Shown piece by piece: positions 6,286 through 47,712 of a stretch of 64,000 bases of DNA. This DNA is from Arenicella xantha (GTDB lineage: Bacteria > Pseudomonadota > Gammaproteobacteria > Arenicellales > Arenicellaceae): the NCBI RefSeq assembly GCF_003315245.1, contig NZ_QNRT01000010.1, positions 1-64,000 of the forward strand, in the 5' to 3' direction. The notes below the pieces were generated by a model, which was not told the DNA's origin, ran no database searches, and saw only the letters and a list, made by a program, of their open reading frames with translations. Position numbers and translations under genes: made by a program. Numbering within the stretch: the stretch's first letter is position 1; each line of letters opens with the position of its first letter.

Positions 6286-6310
6286 GCCGATCATTTACCG
6301 ATCAAAAAAG

Positions 6311-6342
6311 AGCCTCGCTGAGCAATCAGCGGGGCTTTTTTT
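6311..6342 (+). terminator. rho-independent terminator of groESL
   Basis: The stem AGCCTCGCTGA / TCAGCGGGGCT with loop GCAA is followed by seven T, directly downstream of groEL. Confidence 0.92.
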
Positions 6343-6526
6343 ATTGTCAAACACCCTATTCAAAAATTCGAATTAGCGCTAACAGAACATTCTTAAAGTT
6401 TAAACAATATTTTTTGCGGCCTGACTGGTTATTTATAAATTGGGCAACGCGTCTTCCGCATGCACTGAGTAAATCGAAACGAAGCAAATTCTTCGAGCCT
6501 GTTATCTTACTAACCTTTTAAATGCC

Positions 6527-6931
6527 TTAAATTGTAGCAATATAATAAATTGCATTCTCAGTATTAGCAGCCGTGAGTAGGTAATGCTCTCTCCCCTTTG
6601 GCCCTTGACCGACCAAACATACTTGGAATTCTGCATCCTCAGAGAATGCTTCGGAGAATTTCTCCGTGAGCAGTGATGATATGTATAGATATTCATACTC
6701 CTCTTTTCCAAATGAATATGAACACGCTTGGCCTATCCAAGCTGAATCTTTATTAGCATCAATCAGCCATGCATATTCTTTCTTAAAGAAGTTGTCCGCG
6801 ACAAGCGAATGCGATGCTAAAACAATTATATTCTTTGACGGCTTGAATAAAGCAGAACTGTGGAATGAGCCGAACTCTCCTGCTCATGAGAATAATAGGA
6901 CTAAGGATATAGCCGTTAAAGATTTAGCCAT
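6527..6931 (-). pseudogene. lipoprotein gene with UGA at the lipobox cysteine
   Basis: From the ATG at 6931 the minus strand reads 'MAKSLTAISLVLLFS', a TGA at 6886-6884, then 'AGEFGSFHSSALFKPSKN' and 118 sense codons in all, down to a TAA at 6527. No other in-frame stop occurs in 134 codons. 'LLFS-stop-AG' is exactly a lipoprotein signal in which the invariant lipobox Cys (TGC/TGT) has become TGA by one change. The mature part has protein-like composition ('YAWLIDANKDSAWIGQACSY') but no recognised family. It is most likely a recent nonsense mutation; read-through or UGA recoding is a remote alternative. No clear ribosome site is seen. Confidence 0.65.
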
Positions 6932-6978
6932 ATATATCGAGCGCCCACGCTGCAAAAAACGCTGAACCGGTTCCAATT

Positions 6979-7692
6979 TTAGGCCTGTTGTTCAATTTCA
7001 ATTGATATTGGGACGCGGTACTTTTTATTATAAGAACCTGCAGGAAATGACGACCGAGGCTTTAAGTTAATTTTTCCTTGTTGTACGGAAACACCGGCAA
7101 CCAAAGAGAATACGTCTTCGTATAGTTCTAGATCGATATGCGAGGTGAACTCTTTTCCTGATTTTTTGTCGCGGTAATATATATTAGCCCTTGAATCATT
7201 AGATCCGTTAGGTCTTATTTGATATGAGATTTTAACTTCGTATGATTTCGTTTCTTTATGTTTATGCAGAATTTCTAATTCTGTTTTTTTCTCAACAATC
7301 AGCGCCTTTACATCGTCAAGAATGTGACGCTGATTTTCGGAGCATATTAAGCTTAGTACTTTGAATGTATATTCTTCTACAAAATCCAGCAGCTCCACCT
7401 TGGTAAATTCATTTACTGTCTGCTTATCTATACCAACATCAAAATACTTGAACCAGCTTTCGGCTGATGCCTTTCTAGAAATACCAACATCATGCTCTTT
7501 CATCTCGGTCGTGAAATTCACATAGACATGGTCAAAACCGTCCAGAGCGAATTTTAATTCACGCAATTTTCGGGCAACCCTGGCCCCTATTGCGTGAGCG
7601 CTCTTTGGAATTTCAAAACTATTCTTAAAATCGCCTGCAGCAATTTCTTCCACATTTGAAAAGAATCTAATATCGAGTATTAATTTCTCCAT
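6979..7692 (-). CDS. hypothetical cytoplasmic protein
   Basis: A 237-residue protein that I do not recognise. It has no signal peptide or membrane segment. The N-terminal half is mixed alpha/beta, a Lys/Glu-rich helical stretch (about residues 120-150) may form a short coiled coil, and the C-terminal third looks beta-rich ('SYEVKISYQIRPNG', 'YRVPISIEIE'). The ATG has a GAGGAG ribosome site nine bases upstream. A small coiled-coil membrane protein lies 48 bases upstream on the same strand and the two probably form one transcript. Confidence 0.6.
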   Translation of the reverse strand: MEKLILDIRFFSNVEEIAAGDFKNSFEIPKSAHAIGARVARKLRELKFALDGFDHVYVNFTTEMKEHDVGISRKASAESWFKYFDVGIDKQTVNEFTKVELLDFVEEYTFKVLSLICSENQRHILDDVKALIVEKKTELEILHKHKETKSYEVKISYQIRPNGSNDSRANIYYRDKKSGKEFTSHIDLELYEDVFSLVAGVSVQQGKINLKPRSSFPAGSYNKKYRVPISIEIEQQA

Positions 7693-7740
7693 AGCTAACT
7701 ACTCCTCATGCCCAATGACCATACAACGGAGTGTAATCTT

Positions 7741-7995
7741 CTAACCCCAGACAATGAACGCTACCGCTATTAGACCAATAGGAATTAACAAGCGCAAAAC
7801 CCATATTGCTTTATTTTGTATAGCACTGGCTTTTTCTTGTATCTGCTCGCTTCTGTCTTGTATTTTGTCTATACGTTCAAAGTTGGCTTTATTTAAATCA
7901 AAGAGCTGTTTCTGAATATCCAAAGACTCTCTTTGCATCAAAATTTGCGCTTCCTGATTTTCCAGAATTTTGTTAAGTACTTCTGACTGTTCCAT
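7741..7995 (-). CDS. small coiled-coil protein with C-terminal membrane anchor
   Basis: An 84-residue protein. Residues 1-62 are strongly helical and Gln/Glu/Lys-rich ('LNKILENQEAQILMQRES', 'RIDKIQDRSEQIQEKASA'), consistent with a coiled coil. Residues about 64-82 ('IWVLRLLIPIGLIAVAFIVW') form one transmembrane helix at the very C-terminus, so the coil should face the cytoplasm or form a membrane-tethered oligomer. GAGG precedes the ATG. No family is assigned. It is probably co-transcribed with the 237-residue protein. Confidence 0.6.
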   Translation of the reverse strand: MEQSEVLNKILENQEAQILMQRESLDIQKQLFDLNKANFERIDKIQDRSEQIQEKASAIQNKAIWVLRLLIPIGLIAVAFIVWG

Positions 7996-8099
7996 TAACT
8001 ATTAACCTCGTGGATATGCCGCCCTTAAACGCAAGCACGTATTGTCTGAACATTCGAACACACGCAGTACGCACTAGTTTAGAAATTGTAGAGACTTTC

Positions 8100-8540
8100 T
8101 CAATCCCAGTACACTGTGTAAAGATAGTAATCTAGTGCTGGTTCCGGTGCCAGTTTATGCTTCCCATAAGGCCAACCATCTGCACCAACACTATCCGCCT
8201 CCATTCCTTCGACCCACCCTTCAACCGCAAACTGAGAAGCAGATGAAATTACATGAATATTCTCCGCTGAAGGCCAACTTTCTTCATCATCTTGAGATTC
8301 CATCCAATCACCATGCAGCCCAACGTATACACCTTGCACATCGGGGCGAGATTCGATTTTTTTAAATCGAGCGTAAATATCTTTTATCGATGGTCGCCCA
8401 TCTCCCCAGTTATTTGGTGCTATTGACCACTCGTCATCATTCTTATAAAAGTACTCATCCAAACTCACAACAGGGTCATGCTCAGCATCTTCGTTTTGCA
8501 AAGCGATTAATCTATCTAACAGTATTTGTTTTGCACTCAT
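8100..8540 (-). CDS. hypothetical acidic protein
   Basis: A 146-residue soluble, acidic, Trp- and Asp-rich protein with no signal peptide. Notable segments are 'DVQGVYVGLHGDW' and the C-terminal 'LDYYLYTVYWD'. Small acidic proteins of this type are often immunity or inhibitor proteins, but nothing in the sequence proves that. A purine-rich AGAGACAG lies before the ATG. It stands alone on the minus strand, with a perfect hairpin just upstream of its start. Confidence 0.6.
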   Translation of the reverse strand: MSAKQILLDRLIALQNEDAEHDPVVSLDEYFYKNDDEWSIAPNNWGDGRPSIKDIYARFKKIESRPDVQGVYVGLHGDWMESQDDEESWPSAENIHVISSASQFAVEGWVEGMEADSVGADGWPYGKHKLAPEPALDYYLYTVYWD

Positions 8541-8561
8541 ATTCTGTCTCTAACGTATGAA

Positions 8562-8580
8562 GTTGGAGCAAAGCTCCAAC
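8562..8580. repeat. perfect 8-bp hairpin
   Basis: GTTGGAGC-AAA-GCTCCAAC, just upstream of the 8100-8540 gene and downstream of the amidohydrolase gene. It has no T-run on either side. It could be a weak terminator for the amidohydrolase transcript or an operator. Confidence 0.4.
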
Positions 8581-8705
8581 CCTAAGCACATGCGGGTAAA
8601 GTGGCTTCACTGTTGAACTCCCATTATTGCTCCAAAGACTCCAAGCACATGCATAGCCAGAAATGGCGCTGAGGAGAATAGATAGAGTATAGCCCTACGC
8701 GCCAA

Positions 8706-10232
8706 CTACCGATATTCGTCTATATTGATTTTTCGACTATTGTCATTGGCTTTCTTGACTGCTGCGAGCATTGCGTCGAGCTGTCCACGACCGTACACAC
8801 GCCCGTTCAGAATCACCGTTTCGATAGTACGCGTGTTGTTAATATCGACGAGTGGGTTCTTATTTAGAATTAGCATATCCGCACGTCTGCCGACTTCGAT
8901 ACTTCCGGCATTGCTGTTCATTAATTTGGCTGGGTTTAGCGTGGCAGAGGCTAAGGTTTGCGCGGGGCTCATACCACCATTGTGCAACGACTCTAATTCA
9001 TCGTGTAGTGAGAAGCCAGGCACCACTAAGTTAGCGCCTGAGTCAGTGCCGGCGACAATCTTAACACCACGCCTTACCATTGCTTTTAACAGAATGTGAT
9101 GTGCTTGCTCGCGAGCTTGCCAAAAAATATCATTCTTTTGGTAGTTTTTCGATGTGGCGTCACTCACCGCTTCAAATTGATTGTAAGTGGGCAACCAGCC
9201 AACTTTGTAGTCTTCAGAGTCTTTAGTTCCCTCAACAAGGCCGGGGTTGGCGTATTCGATTTGTACCGTTTTTAGCGCGGCCTCAAGGTCGCTGAATTGG
9301 TCGTGAATACTCTCCATAAACCACAATACCGAATTCACCGTAATGTCGTTAGCCAATATGGCATCGATAATTTCATCACTACGCGCTTCAACATGCGCAT
9401 AGAAAGCGGCGCTGCCTTTGTCATTGATTGACCCGAACTCTCGAATCAGTACACGCACTATTTCCTCAATATGAGCAACTTCTGTTTGTTGCGTTACCGC
9501 AAGTTCAGACAACTCAAAACTTAAAGGGAAATGGCCGGTGGTTGGTATTCCTAATTTGGCGGCTACCTTATTCACAGCACGATAACTGGGCATATCAAGA
9601 TGGTAGATTTTGATTGCGTCGTAACCTTGCTTAGCAAAGTCTCTTACCCTGCTTTTTGCATGCTCTACGTTGTGAGTATTTTTATGGAAGGTGATGACTT
9701 CATAAAAGGCACCTTCGAGCAGACCCATCGAATCTATTGGCGGTGATGACACAAACATACGCGGGCCAACACGCCCTTGCTCGATCTCTTCACGCAACTG
9801 TAAGCGCTCAGGCGGCCCACCCAAATCACGAATATGCGTAACGCCGTTGGCAACGTAAAGCAATAGGTCGTTGTGACTCTTCAAGACATGCGCATGTGAA
9901 TCAACTAAGCCTGGGATGATATATTTACCACGCCCATCAATCTCCAATGCATTAACGGGTATAGAGCCGCCTACAGTAACCGAGGTGATCTCTCCGTTGT
10001 CTACTACCACGGTACGGTTAGGAAGCATCGTTTGGCCGTCTGGCGAGAGCACGTTGACGTCGGTAATAGCAGTAAGCTTCATCGGCAAAGCAAATTCCCT
10101 ATGATCGACCACTTCAGTGTGGGCGCCATAGATAAAGCTGACACCATTTTTAAACCAAAGTAAATAAGCCGATGCCAGAAGTATGGTGCAAATTAATAGG
10201 CCAACCAGCCATTTCGAAAGTGTTTTTAACAT
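8706..10232 (-). CDS. membrane-anchored amidohydrolase (imidazolonepropionase-like)
   Basis: A 508-residue metal-dependent hydrolase of the amidohydrolase superfamily. Residues about 8-28 form a single N-terminal membrane segment, so the enzyme is probably periplasmic and tethered. The TIM-barrel metal motif is 'GLVDSHAHV' (His-113 and His-115). A candidate carboxylated lysine lies in 'YDAIKIYHLD', further metal ligands in 'TTGHFP' and 'VAHIEE', and the catalytic Asp in 'VAGTDSGAN'. The C-terminal 'GRRADMLILNKNPL' beta-domain is typical. Relatives include aryldialkylphosphatases and Xaa-Pro/Xaa-Arg dipeptidases; the substrate is unknown. Two regulator genes follow upstream on the same strand. 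Confidence 0.85.
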   Translation of the reverse strand: MLKTLSKWLVGLLICTILLASAYLLWFKNGVSFIYGAHTEVVDHREFALPMKLTAITDVNVLSPDGQTMLPNRTVVVDNGEITSVTVGGSIPVNALEIDGRGKYIIPGLVDSHAHVLKSHNDLLLYVANGVTHIRDLGGPPERLQLREEIEQGRVGPRMFVSSPPIDSMGLLEGAFYEVITFHKNTHNVEHAKSRVRDFAKQGYDAIKIYHLDMPSYRAVNKVAAKLGIPTTGHFPLSFELSELAVTQQTEVAHIEEIVRVLIREFGSINDKGSAAFYAHVEARSDEIIDAILANDITVNSVLWFMESIHDQFSDLEAALKTVQIEYANPGLVEGTKDSEDYKVGWLPTYNQFEAVSDATSKNYQKNDIFWQAREQAHHILLKAMVRRGVKIVAGTDSGANLVVPGFSLHDELESLHNGGMSPAQTLASATLNPAKLMNSNAGSIEVGRRADMLILNKNPLVDINNTRTIETVILNGRVYGRGQLDAMLAAVKKANDNSRKINIDEYR

Positions 10233-10355
10233 GAGTAGAATCCATCGGTTATTGATGGCTCTATTTCAACACTCAAGCTCACCATGCGCGTCCAGCCTTA
10301 TAAAACTAGACGTCCAAGATTATAGTTCTAGCGCGTTGCCCAGCAAAAATACCGT

Positions 10356-11471
10356 TCATGATTTTGACGGCAACTGTCGACGGTACGCGCTGGGGGTTAG
10401 CCCGGTGATCTTTTTGAAGATCGCATTGAAACTGCTTTTAGATGCAAACCCCGCGTCCAATGCTAGGTCAATCAATTTGCTTTCGCTGTTTTGGTCGAGT
10501 TGCTGACACACTTCAGCAACTCGGTATTCGTTGATAAAACGATTAAAATTTTTGCCGCCGTACTGATTTAGTGTTTCAGACAGATGGTGCACACTAACAC
10601 CTACTTGTTCCGCAAGCGCTGCCAAGGTGAGTTCACTATTACGGTAAAGCGCCTGCTGTTGAACTCGATCTTGCACCAACCTCAACACGCTTGAACGAGT
10701 CTCCTGGTCTAATAAACCATCCGTTGGCGGTTTACTACTACTTTCCGCCGGTTGCTCGCTTTGCGTGGTGAGTTGCTGAATCTGAAACAGAGTCGGGTTT
10801 CGCCATTGCACAATGGCAATAAAGTAAACCATGATTACCAACAGGCAATCGGCCAAAACATTGACGATCGGCGCTCGACTAATAAAATAGAACAGTATCT
10901 TTAAGCCCCATATCGAAACCATGAAGGCGATCAAACTCCATAGCCACTTAAAAATATCTGGGTTGTACGATGATAGGGTTTGTTTCGCTTTAGTTTGGTA
11001 GCGGCTGACCATTCTTATCAAAAGCGTCGAGTAAACGACGGTTTGACCGTAAAAAACAACTTTTGTAAGGGTATGCTTTAACAATGTGGTGTCAGCCATT
11101 CGGACAAAGCTCAACGCCTTGCTAGGCGAGAACAGAATGTCATAATTGAGCAAATAGCATACGGCTAAGGGCAATAAATGCAGCGCATCGATGGGTTTCA
11201 ACGATGAACTAGTAATGGCTGTTCGGCAATACAAATAGGTAAGGGCGCCATAACTGGCGGGCAAAAAAACAAAGAAGCCAATCAACCCTGTAAAACTACT
11301 TTCCCCTGCGGCAACGATTAGCGGCAAAACAAAGGTCGTCGCCATTAACAAACATTGTAACCCGAGCAATTTACTAGCGTAGTTAACCCGCTTATCGCTC
11401 ACCAAAAGCGCGAATAGCAAAAAGCCCTGAAGCCCTCCAATGGCCAGTATTAAAGTCTGAGTTTGCGACAT
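10356..11471 (-). CDS. AraC-family regulator with N-terminal membrane domain
   Basis: A 371-residue protein with about seven transmembrane helices in residues 1-230 and a C-terminal AraC/XylS double helix-turn-helix (about residues 260-368). The DNA-binding signature 'GFASKSSFNAIFKKITGLTP' is intact. This membrane-AraC architecture senses a signal in or across the membrane and binds DNA from the inner face. It lies 123 bases upstream of the amidohydrolase gene on the same strand, so that gene is a plausible target. A second protein of the same layout is encoded at 27095-28234. Confidence 0.85.
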   Translation of the reverse strand: MSQTQTLILAIGGLQGFLLFALLVSDKRVNYASKLLGLQCLLMATTFVLPLIVAAGESSFTGLIGFFVFLPASYGALTYLYCRTAITSSSLKPIDALHLLPLAVCYLLNYDILFSPSKALSFVRMADTTLLKHTLTKVVFYGQTVVYSTLLIRMVSRYQTKAKQTLSSYNPDIFKWLWSLIAFMVSIWGLKILFYFISRAPIVNVLADCLLVIMVYFIAIVQWRNPTLFQIQQLTTQSEQPAESSSKPPTDGLLDQETRSSVLRLVQDRVQQQALYRNSELTLAALAEQVGVSVHHLSETLNQYGGKNFNRFINEYRVAEVCQQLDQNSESKLIDLALDAGFASKSSFNAIFKKITGLTPSAYRRQLPSKS

Positions 11472-11496
11472 GGTGGGTTATGCAGACGTTGTAGTG

Positions 11497-46017: not shown

Positions 46018-47712
46018 TTAAAATTTCATAAATTCCAGCAGCCGTTTTCTAGCTGCCTCAACCTCTTCAATACTCTTTAAATCTCGTGCAACGTCAGCGC
46101 GCTCGCCCTGGCGACCATGCGCCACAAGGGTATAATATTGTGTGGTCTTGTTACCGCTAGTCGAGCTATGACTTTTCCTCTCAACCAACTCCTCAAACGA
46201 GTAGGACGGCACAAATTTTGGCTTCAATGAGATTCCAAACAGCGTCCGATTTGAGGTGATTCCTTCTGGCCCAATTCGAACTATTAAACCGCTACCAAAC
46301 CAAGCCAAACCCGCCAACCCGACAATGCCACCTATTAGCGGGAACACGATATTAAATACCAATTCAGGTATCAGCAAGCCAATCACCACAAATACCAATC
46401 CGATAGCCCCCATAACTAGACCGGCCCAATGCGTATAAGCTGGATAGCTCAGCTGGTGCCCACCATTAACAGGAACTAAATCGAGCACGGTCTTAATCCG
46501 CTGATCGAGCGCCACCAATGACGCTGTTGAAGTTGCTTGGTGTGCTTCTGGATCGCGAATCGAAGACTTCTCACCAGTGCGAAACACCGGTAAATCAACG
46601 TATTCGCGACTTATCTCCTGACCGTCTGCCAGCGTTGCCTCAAATTGTAGCCGCCATGCGATACCTGGAATTTTGCCCGGCGCTTCTGAAATCGGTAGAT
46701 CCGCCTCATCGTCTAAGTCGAAACAAAAACTGGCTTGCAGTCCAGAGCCCGTACTCTGCCACGCCGGAATCATTCTCCGTTGCCAGATCATAGTTTGCTG
46801 CGTGTGCTTACCGCTACGATATCTACGTACACATTGTAGAATCACCGCCGATTGCTGTGGACGCCCCATTGATGAATTACTTAGCACGATATGGCCACCC
46901 GTTTGACCTCCTATGGACCCAGGAAAGGGGTCCATAGTGAGTGGCATAGGTCCAGTTCGCTGATAACTGCGGTGCATGCGGTACCACAAATATACCAACA
47001 ACACGCCGACCGCCGGGAAAGCTAGGAAAATCAGCGCTAAATAGTCACCGTCACTGATTGCCTTAATCGACATGACCAATGCGAACGAGGATATGGCGTT
47101 CCACATCACAGCAAAAGCCAACATCGCTCGGGCACCCAGCTTGCTATTAGAGATTCGGCTCGGCTGATTCCACTCTTTATACTGCTGCCAAGGCTGCTCA
47201 ATAGATGCACCCTGAATCGGCTCCCGGCTACGCCAGTTCATAAGTGTATACACTAAGCCACCAACGCCGACCCCACCAAACATCACCAGAAACGCACTCG
47301 CAAACATCAACATAGACCATCGCAAAGCACGGTCAATTACTGCTTCAGAAGGCTGATCGGGGTTTACCCAGACAGTAAAACTACCGCCCTGATTACTAAT
47401 TTGCGCCAGTCGTTCCGCCATATCCTGTTGATAAGACCCAATATTATCGTAGCCAGTGCTCCAATGAACTCGGTCCGAATGATAGGTTTGACCATTAAAC
47501 AGGTAGGAATACTCTGCCCGCGCTTGATAAGTGGTACTGTCCTCACCCCGTTGCTGCGCAAGCGAATGCGAAGACAACACCGCCGGTGTTTCAACCCAAG
47601 ATTTCGCCGCCATTGACTGCGAAATCATCGACACACCCTGAATTAAGAAGATGCCGATTCCAGCTGCTGCGAAAATGCCGAAAAACAATACTCCCAACCA
47701 GTTTCCCTTCAT
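46018..47712 (-). CDS. DUF3592 membrane protein
   Basis: A 564-residue membrane protein. The N-terminal DUF3592 module has a first helix (about 7-29) followed by a periplasmic beta-domain ('ARAEYSYLFNGQTYHSDRVH'). Further hydrophobic helices lie around residues 130-155, 195-240 and 425-475, with large soluble regions between. DUF3592 proteins are common and uncharacterised. No operon partner is present. Confidence 0.78.
   Translation of the reverse strand: MKGNWLGVLFFGIFAAAGIGIFLIQGVSMISQSMAAKSWVETPAVLSSHSLAQQRGEDSTTYQARAEYSYLFNGQTYHSDRVHWSTGYDNIGSYQQDMAERLAQISNQGGSFTVWVNPDQPSEAVIDRALRWSMLMFASAFLVMFGGVGVGGLVYTLMNWRSREPIQGASIEQPWQQYKEWNQPSRISNSKLGARAMLAFAVMWNAISSFALVMSIKAISDGDYLALIFLAFPAVGVLLVYLWYRMHRSYQRTGPMPLTMDPFPGSIGGQTGGHIVLSNSSMGRPQQSAVILQCVRRYRSGKHTQQTMIWQRRMIPAWQSTGSGLQASFCFDLDDEADLPISEAPGKIPGIAWRLQFEATLADGQEISREYVDLPVFRTGEKSSIRDPEAHQATSTASLVALDQRIKTVLDLVPVNGGHQLSYPAYTHWAGLVMGAIGLVFVVIGLLIPELVFNIVFPLIGGIVGLAGLAWFGSGLIVRIGPEGITSNRTLFGISLKPKFVPSYSFEELVERKSHSSTSGNKTTQYYTLVAHGRQGERADVARDLKSIEEVEAARKRLLEFMKF

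What the first reader, a model, noticed from the sequence alone, without database searches (positions are those of the whole stretch)
6527..6931. UGA exactly at the lipobox cysteine of an otherwise open lipoprotein gene
The only stop in 134 codons falls at the invariant cysteine of 'LLFS-x-AG'. A nonsense mutation TGC/TGT to TGA explains it, but the rest of the frame shows no further decay, so the event is recent or the UGA is sometimes decoded. UGA recoding as selenocysteine would be extraordinary and is not supported by a strong downstream SECIS-like stem.
Basis: partly seen in the sequence, partly recalled or inferred. Interest (0 to 1): 0.6.

Follow-up and report, generated by a model that had tools for sequence, protein, structure and literature searches.

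The report
Dead lipoprotein gene, probable integron fossil
A small bacterial lipoprotein gene, probably once a mobile integron cassette, carries an ordinary-looking stop mutation at its lipid-attachment cysteine; nothing found suggests that the stop is read as an amino acid, so this is most likely a recently broken gene and not a new genetic code.

Summary
Two relatives were found, both in one genome of the same genus; both are intact with cysteine in that column. The genome shows no SelB or tRNA-Sec over cut-off, no UCA anticodon in a nearly complete tRNA survey, and no fold after the UGA better than shuffles. The broken copy has not changed faster than its closest relative (a small test), so the stop is recent or a sequencing error. 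One spacer of that block clearly resembles attC; the one beside the broken gene does so weakly; covariance models find neither convincingly. Best reading: a probable stranded cassette gene, newly inactivated by a nonsense mutation. Ordinary; low interest.

The parts
6527..6931 (-). Broken small lipoprotein gene, 135 codons including the terminal stop, one internal TGA
6884..6886 (-). In-frame TGA (codon 16) at the lipobox cysteine column
6446..6504 (-). Weak attC-like sequence downstream of the broken gene (inferred decayed attC)
   Evidence: local alignment 121, rank 4 of 2,324 tiles, just behind two tiles elsewhere (123, 122), reversed-attC control maximum 116; 0 of 2,000 shuffles against the best-matching attC, 7 of 2,000 against L003's own downstream attC; R1 6.6 bits, E 3.6; R2 no match here
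6979..7692 (-). 237-aa hypothetical gene of the same block
   Evidence: found only in the own genome of 145; no Pfam match at E<=1, no NCBIfam match at E<=0.1
7741..7995 (-). 84-aa hypothetical gene of the same block
8012..8089 (-). attC-like sequence between the 146-aa and 84-aa genes (inferred decayed attC)
   Evidence: best of 2,324 tiles, 147 v reversed-attC control maximum 116; 0 of 2,000 shuffles; not among the matches of R1 or R2
8100..8540 (-). 146-aa hypothetical gene with inverted TAGAGAC / GTCTCTA at its edges (8552-8546 and 8095-8089), as cassette ends have
   Evidence: 7 bases; the other five block genes give 2 to 4; found only in the own genome of 369
6287..11496 (.). Block present here and absent between groEL and the 243-aa HTH gene in G015 and G005 (gap of 80 to 90 bp there); which state is ancestral was not shown

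Best explanation
A gene for a small lipoprotein, of a family seen here otherwise only in one other genome of the genus, has been inactivated by a single nonsense change that put TGA at the lipobox cysteine (shown by homology, barring a sequencing error). Translation stops after 15 residues of signal peptide and no full-length lipoprotein is made (inferred from the standard code and the decoding genes found). The rest of the frame is intact because the event is recent (supported by a small rate test). The gene probably arrived as an integron gene cassette, became stranded beside groEL, and its attC sites decayed (inferred; I put this part at about 0.7 by itself).
For: Both intact relatives carry Cys in the UGA column. 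Window copy and L003 differ as coding sequences do: 40/24/61 changes at codon positions 1/2/3 of 133 codons, dN/dS about 0.16 with dS 1.6 near saturation. No acceleration in the relative-rate test. SelB over cut-off in 0 of 18 genus genomes including this one, 2 of 14 control genomes over it. tRNA-Sec over cut-off 0 here, 5 of 14 controls over it. Of 37 tRNA matches, 35 have a named anticodon that is not UCA, one is unreadable (tt), one was read by eye as ATT. Fold after the UGA z 0.01. L003 lies between attC sites 8915-8989 and 9408-9482 of L057, gene 8991-9401. The genome has two integron integrases over cut-off and a broken third. attC-like spacers, one clear and one weak. Inverted cassette-edge repeat at the 146-aa gene. 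Block absent in G015 and G005.
Against: Against the cassette part: R1 places 6470-6504 only seventh of 13 matches in the window (6.6 bits, E 3.6), below matches elsewhere such as 46078-46153 (14.9 bits, E 0.014), and does not list 8012-8089; R2 lists neither spacer. The models' other matches inside 6287-11496 are short + strand ones inside genes (R1 7786-7799, E 3.1; R2 9233-9249, E 8.2). The tile score of the spacer beside the broken gene (121) is no higher than two tiles elsewhere (123, 122). Neither spacer folds better than shuffles, z 1.56 and -0.27, although two real attC sites also gave only -1.29 and 0.08. The upstream edge of the broken gene shows no attC signal (1,669 of 2,000 shuffles as good) and no cassette-edge inverted repeat. 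The block also holds a 508-aa amidohydrolase and an AraC-type regulator, not typical cassettes (recalled). The block genes run opposite to the attC sites near groEL in G015 and G010. Against 'true mutation': no reads.
Confidence: 0.85

Rival explanations
1. Sequencing or assembly error: the strain has an intact lipoprotein gene.
For: The TGA is the only internal stop, and no relaxed constraint is seen. The genome is in 29 contigs.
Against: A substitution is needed, not an indel; substitution errors are rare in drafts of good depth (recalled). No reads were available, so untested.
Confidence: 0.12
2. The UGA is decoded, as selenocysteine through SelB or as cysteine by an opal tRNA, so the lipoprotein is made.
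For: The UGA sits where both homologues have Cys, and the downstream frame is intact. selC*-type tRNA-Cys with UCA anticodons exist in some anaerobic bacteria (PMC7609411, passages).
Against: No SelB over cut-off; no tRNA-Sec over cut-off, though the best match, 45.8 bits, is close to the 47-bit cut-off and is a tRNA-Ser(tga) by ARAGORN; no UCA anticodon seen among 37 tRNA matches; a pattern for UCA-type loops gave 48 matches v 58 for the backward control, and ARAGORN on 30 of the 48 found only tRNA-Asp, Val and Leu; no SECIS-like fold. The survey is not complete: 150 of 195 first-look candidates were scored, and no tRNA-Ile appeared.
Confidence: 0.01
3. Low-level UGA readthrough by an ordinary tRNA yields a little unlipidated protein that still has a use.
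For: The frame beyond the UGA is intact and not visibly decayed. Near-cognate readthrough of UGA is general knowledge (recalled).
Against: It would not place Cys, so lipidation fails (recalled). The UGA is not conserved: 0 of 2 relatives.
Confidence: 0.02

Closest known systems
[quoted passage not shown] PMC9024848, passages)
   Same: Closest relative L003 sits in such an array; the genome and 12 other genus genomes carry an integron integrase over cut-off, 13 of 18 in all; one spacer of the block clearly, one weakly, resembles attC.
   Different: The window sites are not found as attC by covariance models, and none of the 11 integrase-model matches in the own genome lies on the window's contig C10.
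Bacterial lipoproteins with a lipobox
   Same: Both relatives have a hydrophobic signal peptide and a cysteine in lipobox position (LLCSC-N, TTSC-T). Lipobox rules are recalled, no predictor was run.
   Different: The cysteine codon is a stop here. No Pfam match over cut-off (on the part after the stop) and no NCBIfam match for the two relatives.
Selenoproteins with a UGA at a Cys position
   Same: UGA at a column that is Cys in homologues.
   Different: No decoding machinery or stem found; a Sec in a lipobox is not known to me (recalled, not searched).

Membership tests
Selenoprotein gene | SelB in the genome | tested here: not met
   0 of 18 genus genomes over cut-off; best own match 182.6 v 242.25 bits, in a 397-aa open frame, model positions 1-263 of 581 only
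Selenoprotein gene | tRNA-Sec in the genome | tested here: not met
   best 45.8 v 47 bits; that site is tRNA-Ser(tga) by ARAGORN
Selenoprotein gene | SECIS-type stem just after the UGA | tested here: not met
   z 0.01, 87 of 200 shuffles fold at least as well; no SECIS model was run
UGA decoded as Cys by an opal tRNA | tRNA with UCA anticodon | tested here: not met
   survey not complete (150 of 195 candidates scored; 30 of 48 pattern matches scanned)
Lipoprotein family of L003 and L004 | Homology over the whole length | tested here: met
   61% and 37% identity in the alignment
Lipoprotein | Cysteine at the lipobox | tested here: not met
   TGA at codon 16
Integron cassette (closest relative L003) | attC on both sides, in an array of one orientation | tested here: met
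   the model matches include the sites it was built from
Integron cassette (window gene itself) | attC recognised by a covariance model | tested here: not met
   only pairwise similarity
CALIN | At least two attC sites without an integrase | tested here: inconclusive
   one clear and one weak attC-like spacer by pairwise alignment, neither convincing by model

The most novel reading that the evidence does not exclude
The UGA is translated at some level, so that the intact mature part is still made in an unlipidated form, as a stop-codon switch on a former cassette gene.
Probability: 0.02. Interest if true: 0.6.

Novelty: new member of a known kind. Interest (0 to 1): 0.12.

Why it matters
As an ordinary case, it shows how a striking stop codon at a conserved cysteine resolves into a probable recent nonsense mutation once homologues and decoding genes are checked. 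It may also be an integron cassette that became fixed beside groEL and is now decaying. A true recoding of a lipobox cysteine would have been remarkable, but nothing here supports it.

Tried and rejected
Selenocysteine and opal-tRNA decoding: no support. Restart after the stop: no ATG or GTG follows in frame, and the only TTG is codon 106; CTG at codons 56 and 87 and ATT or ATA codons exist and were not examined further. Long-standing pseudogene: no rate acceleration, with only 21 informative amino-acid positions. Wider homologues: no match in viral contigs, genome contigs, plasmids or phages, collections that may leave out records near the window's own genome; nor in 369 class genomes apart from G000 and G015. 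A CALIN call: not made, because R1 and R2 do not recover the sites. A third attC upstream of the 146-aa gene looked plausible by eye but scored at background (74; 1,001 of 2,324 tiles as good), although its fold was the best of the five tested (z -1.83). attC flanks of the second relative L004 were seen by eye but are not among the R1 matches. Chance of landing on this codon: 77 single-substitution routes to a stop exist in the other 133 codons, so if all routes are equal this is about 1 in 78 and needs no special cause.

Papers: PMC9024848, PMC7609411 and PMC10963911 seen as passages; other titles only in search listings. One paper was listed for Arenicella with integron, a metagenome resistome study.

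Full report
What is there. It reads as a signal peptide, then a stop at codon 16 (TGA, 6886-6884), then 118 open codons to a normal stop. The given frame of the + strand has many stops.

Is it a real gene. Yes. A search of 61 genomes found two intact copies besides the window's own, both in genome G015 of the same genus: 61% identity (L003, E 6.8e-50) and 35% (L004, E 1.7e-19). The class-level search gave the same two genomes, own and G015, of 369. No relative was found in viral contigs, genome contigs, plasmids or phages; these collections may leave out records near the own genome. In the alignment both relatives have cysteine at the UGA column, in lipobox position. NCBIfam gave no match for the two relatives, and Pfam nothing over cut-off for the part after the stop. 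The genus is probably Arenicella: of 8 named relatives of the neighbouring HTH protein, 3 are titled Arenicella and 1 Arenicellaceae; this is an inference, as the genome itself is unnamed.

Is the UGA decoded. Nothing supports it. SelB is over cut-off in 0 of 18 genus genomes. tRNA-Sec is not over cut-off in the own genome; its best site, 45.8 bits against 47, is a tRNA-Ser(tga). Of 37 tRNA matches, 35 have named anticodons, none UCA; one at C2:509127 is unreadable to ARAGORN (tt), and its neighbour at C2:509200, not called by ARAGORN, I read by eye as ATT. A pattern for UCA-type loops gave 48 matches against 58 for the backward control; ARAGORN on the 30 that became loci found only tRNA-Asp, Val and Leu. 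The RNA after the UGA folds no better than shuffles. Limits: 150 of 195 candidates were scored, and no tRNA-Ile turned up, so the survey is not complete.

How old is the stop. Between the window copy and L003, changes at codon positions 1/2/3 are 40/24/61 of 133 codons, with dN/dS about 0.16 and dS 1.6, near saturation. This mostly reflects the time before the stop. With L004 as outgroup, 12 amino-acid changes are unique to the window copy and 9 to L003 (p 0.66), and 45 and 46 nucleotide changes (p 1.0). The test is small, but shows no sign of long neutral decay. Either the nonsense mutation is recent or it is a sequencing error.

Where it sits. L003 is an integron gene cassette: it lies at 8991-9401 of L057 between attC sites at 8915-8989 and 9408-9482. 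A model R1 was built from 24 attC sites of two genomes, these two included. The own genome has two integron integrases over cut-off and one broken copy; 13 of 18 genus genomes have one over cut-off. The window gene lies in a stretch, 6287-11496, absent between groEL and the 243-aa HTH gene in G015 and G005, where the gap is 80 to 90 bp. Of 14 groEL flanks compared, these two show the HTH gene next to groEL and none holds a relative of the six block genes; several of the 14 reach only 0.3 to 1.5 kb beyond groEL or stop at a contig end. Which arrangement is ancestral was not shown. In G010 an integron integrase lies directly beside groEL with an attC site, and in G015 four attC sites lie about 5 kb from groEL, both with attC on the groEL strand, opposite to the genes of the window block.

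Fossil attC sites. Local alignment of 24 attC sites to 2,324 tiles of the window put the spacer 8012-8089 first (147). The spacer downstream of the broken gene, 6446-6504, came fourth (121), behind two tiles elsewhere (123 and 122); with reversed attC sites the best tile scored 116. Against the best-matching attC, 0 of 2,000 shuffles reached either score; against L003's own downstream attC, 7 of 2,000 reached the second. The 146-aa gene has a 7-base inverted repeat at its two edges, as cassette ends do, while the other five block genes give 2 to 4. Against this: R1 gave 6.6 bits at 6470-6504, seventh of 13 matches in the window and below matches elsewhere (best 46078-46153, 14.9 bits), and did not list 8012-8089; R2 listed neither; the folds are not better than shuffles, although two real attC sites were not clearly better either; and the upstream edge of the broken gene shows no attC signal. 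The descent of the window gene from a cassette therefore rests mainly on its closest relative and on the neighbouring spacer, and is inferred.

Verdict. A probable recent inactivation of a lipoprotein gene in a probable integron-cassette remnant. That a stop fell on the lipobox cysteine is about a 1-in-78 coincidence if all single-substitution routes in this gene are equal, unremarkable in a scan for odd things.

Noticed in passing
L053:1128-1264 (G000 C2:509127-509263): Two adjacent odd tRNA-like genes: ARAGORN calls one with an unreadable anticodon (tt) and does not call the other, whose anticodon loop I read by eye as ATT.
   Followed up: partly
L094:14-2990 (G010 C40): An integron integrase lies directly beside the groEL 3' end, with an attC site about 650 bases beyond it; the groEL flank may be a recurrent integron site in this genus.
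   Followed up: partly
L092:582-2111 (G015 C4): Four attC sites about 5 kb from groEL; none of that genome's integrase matches in the genus search lies on this contig.
   Followed up: partly
G000 C1:1238962-1239547: A third, broken integron integrase (one TAA inside, in two pieces), with attC sites nearby in L074.
   Followed up: no
window 8706-11471: An amidohydrolase-like protein (508 aa) and an AraC-type regulator (371 aa) lie in the stretch that is absent beside groEL in G015 and G005.
   Followed up: partly
window 46078-46153: The best attC-model (R1) match of the window, 14.9 bits, E 0.014, minus strand; it is not among the R2 matches.
   Followed up: no
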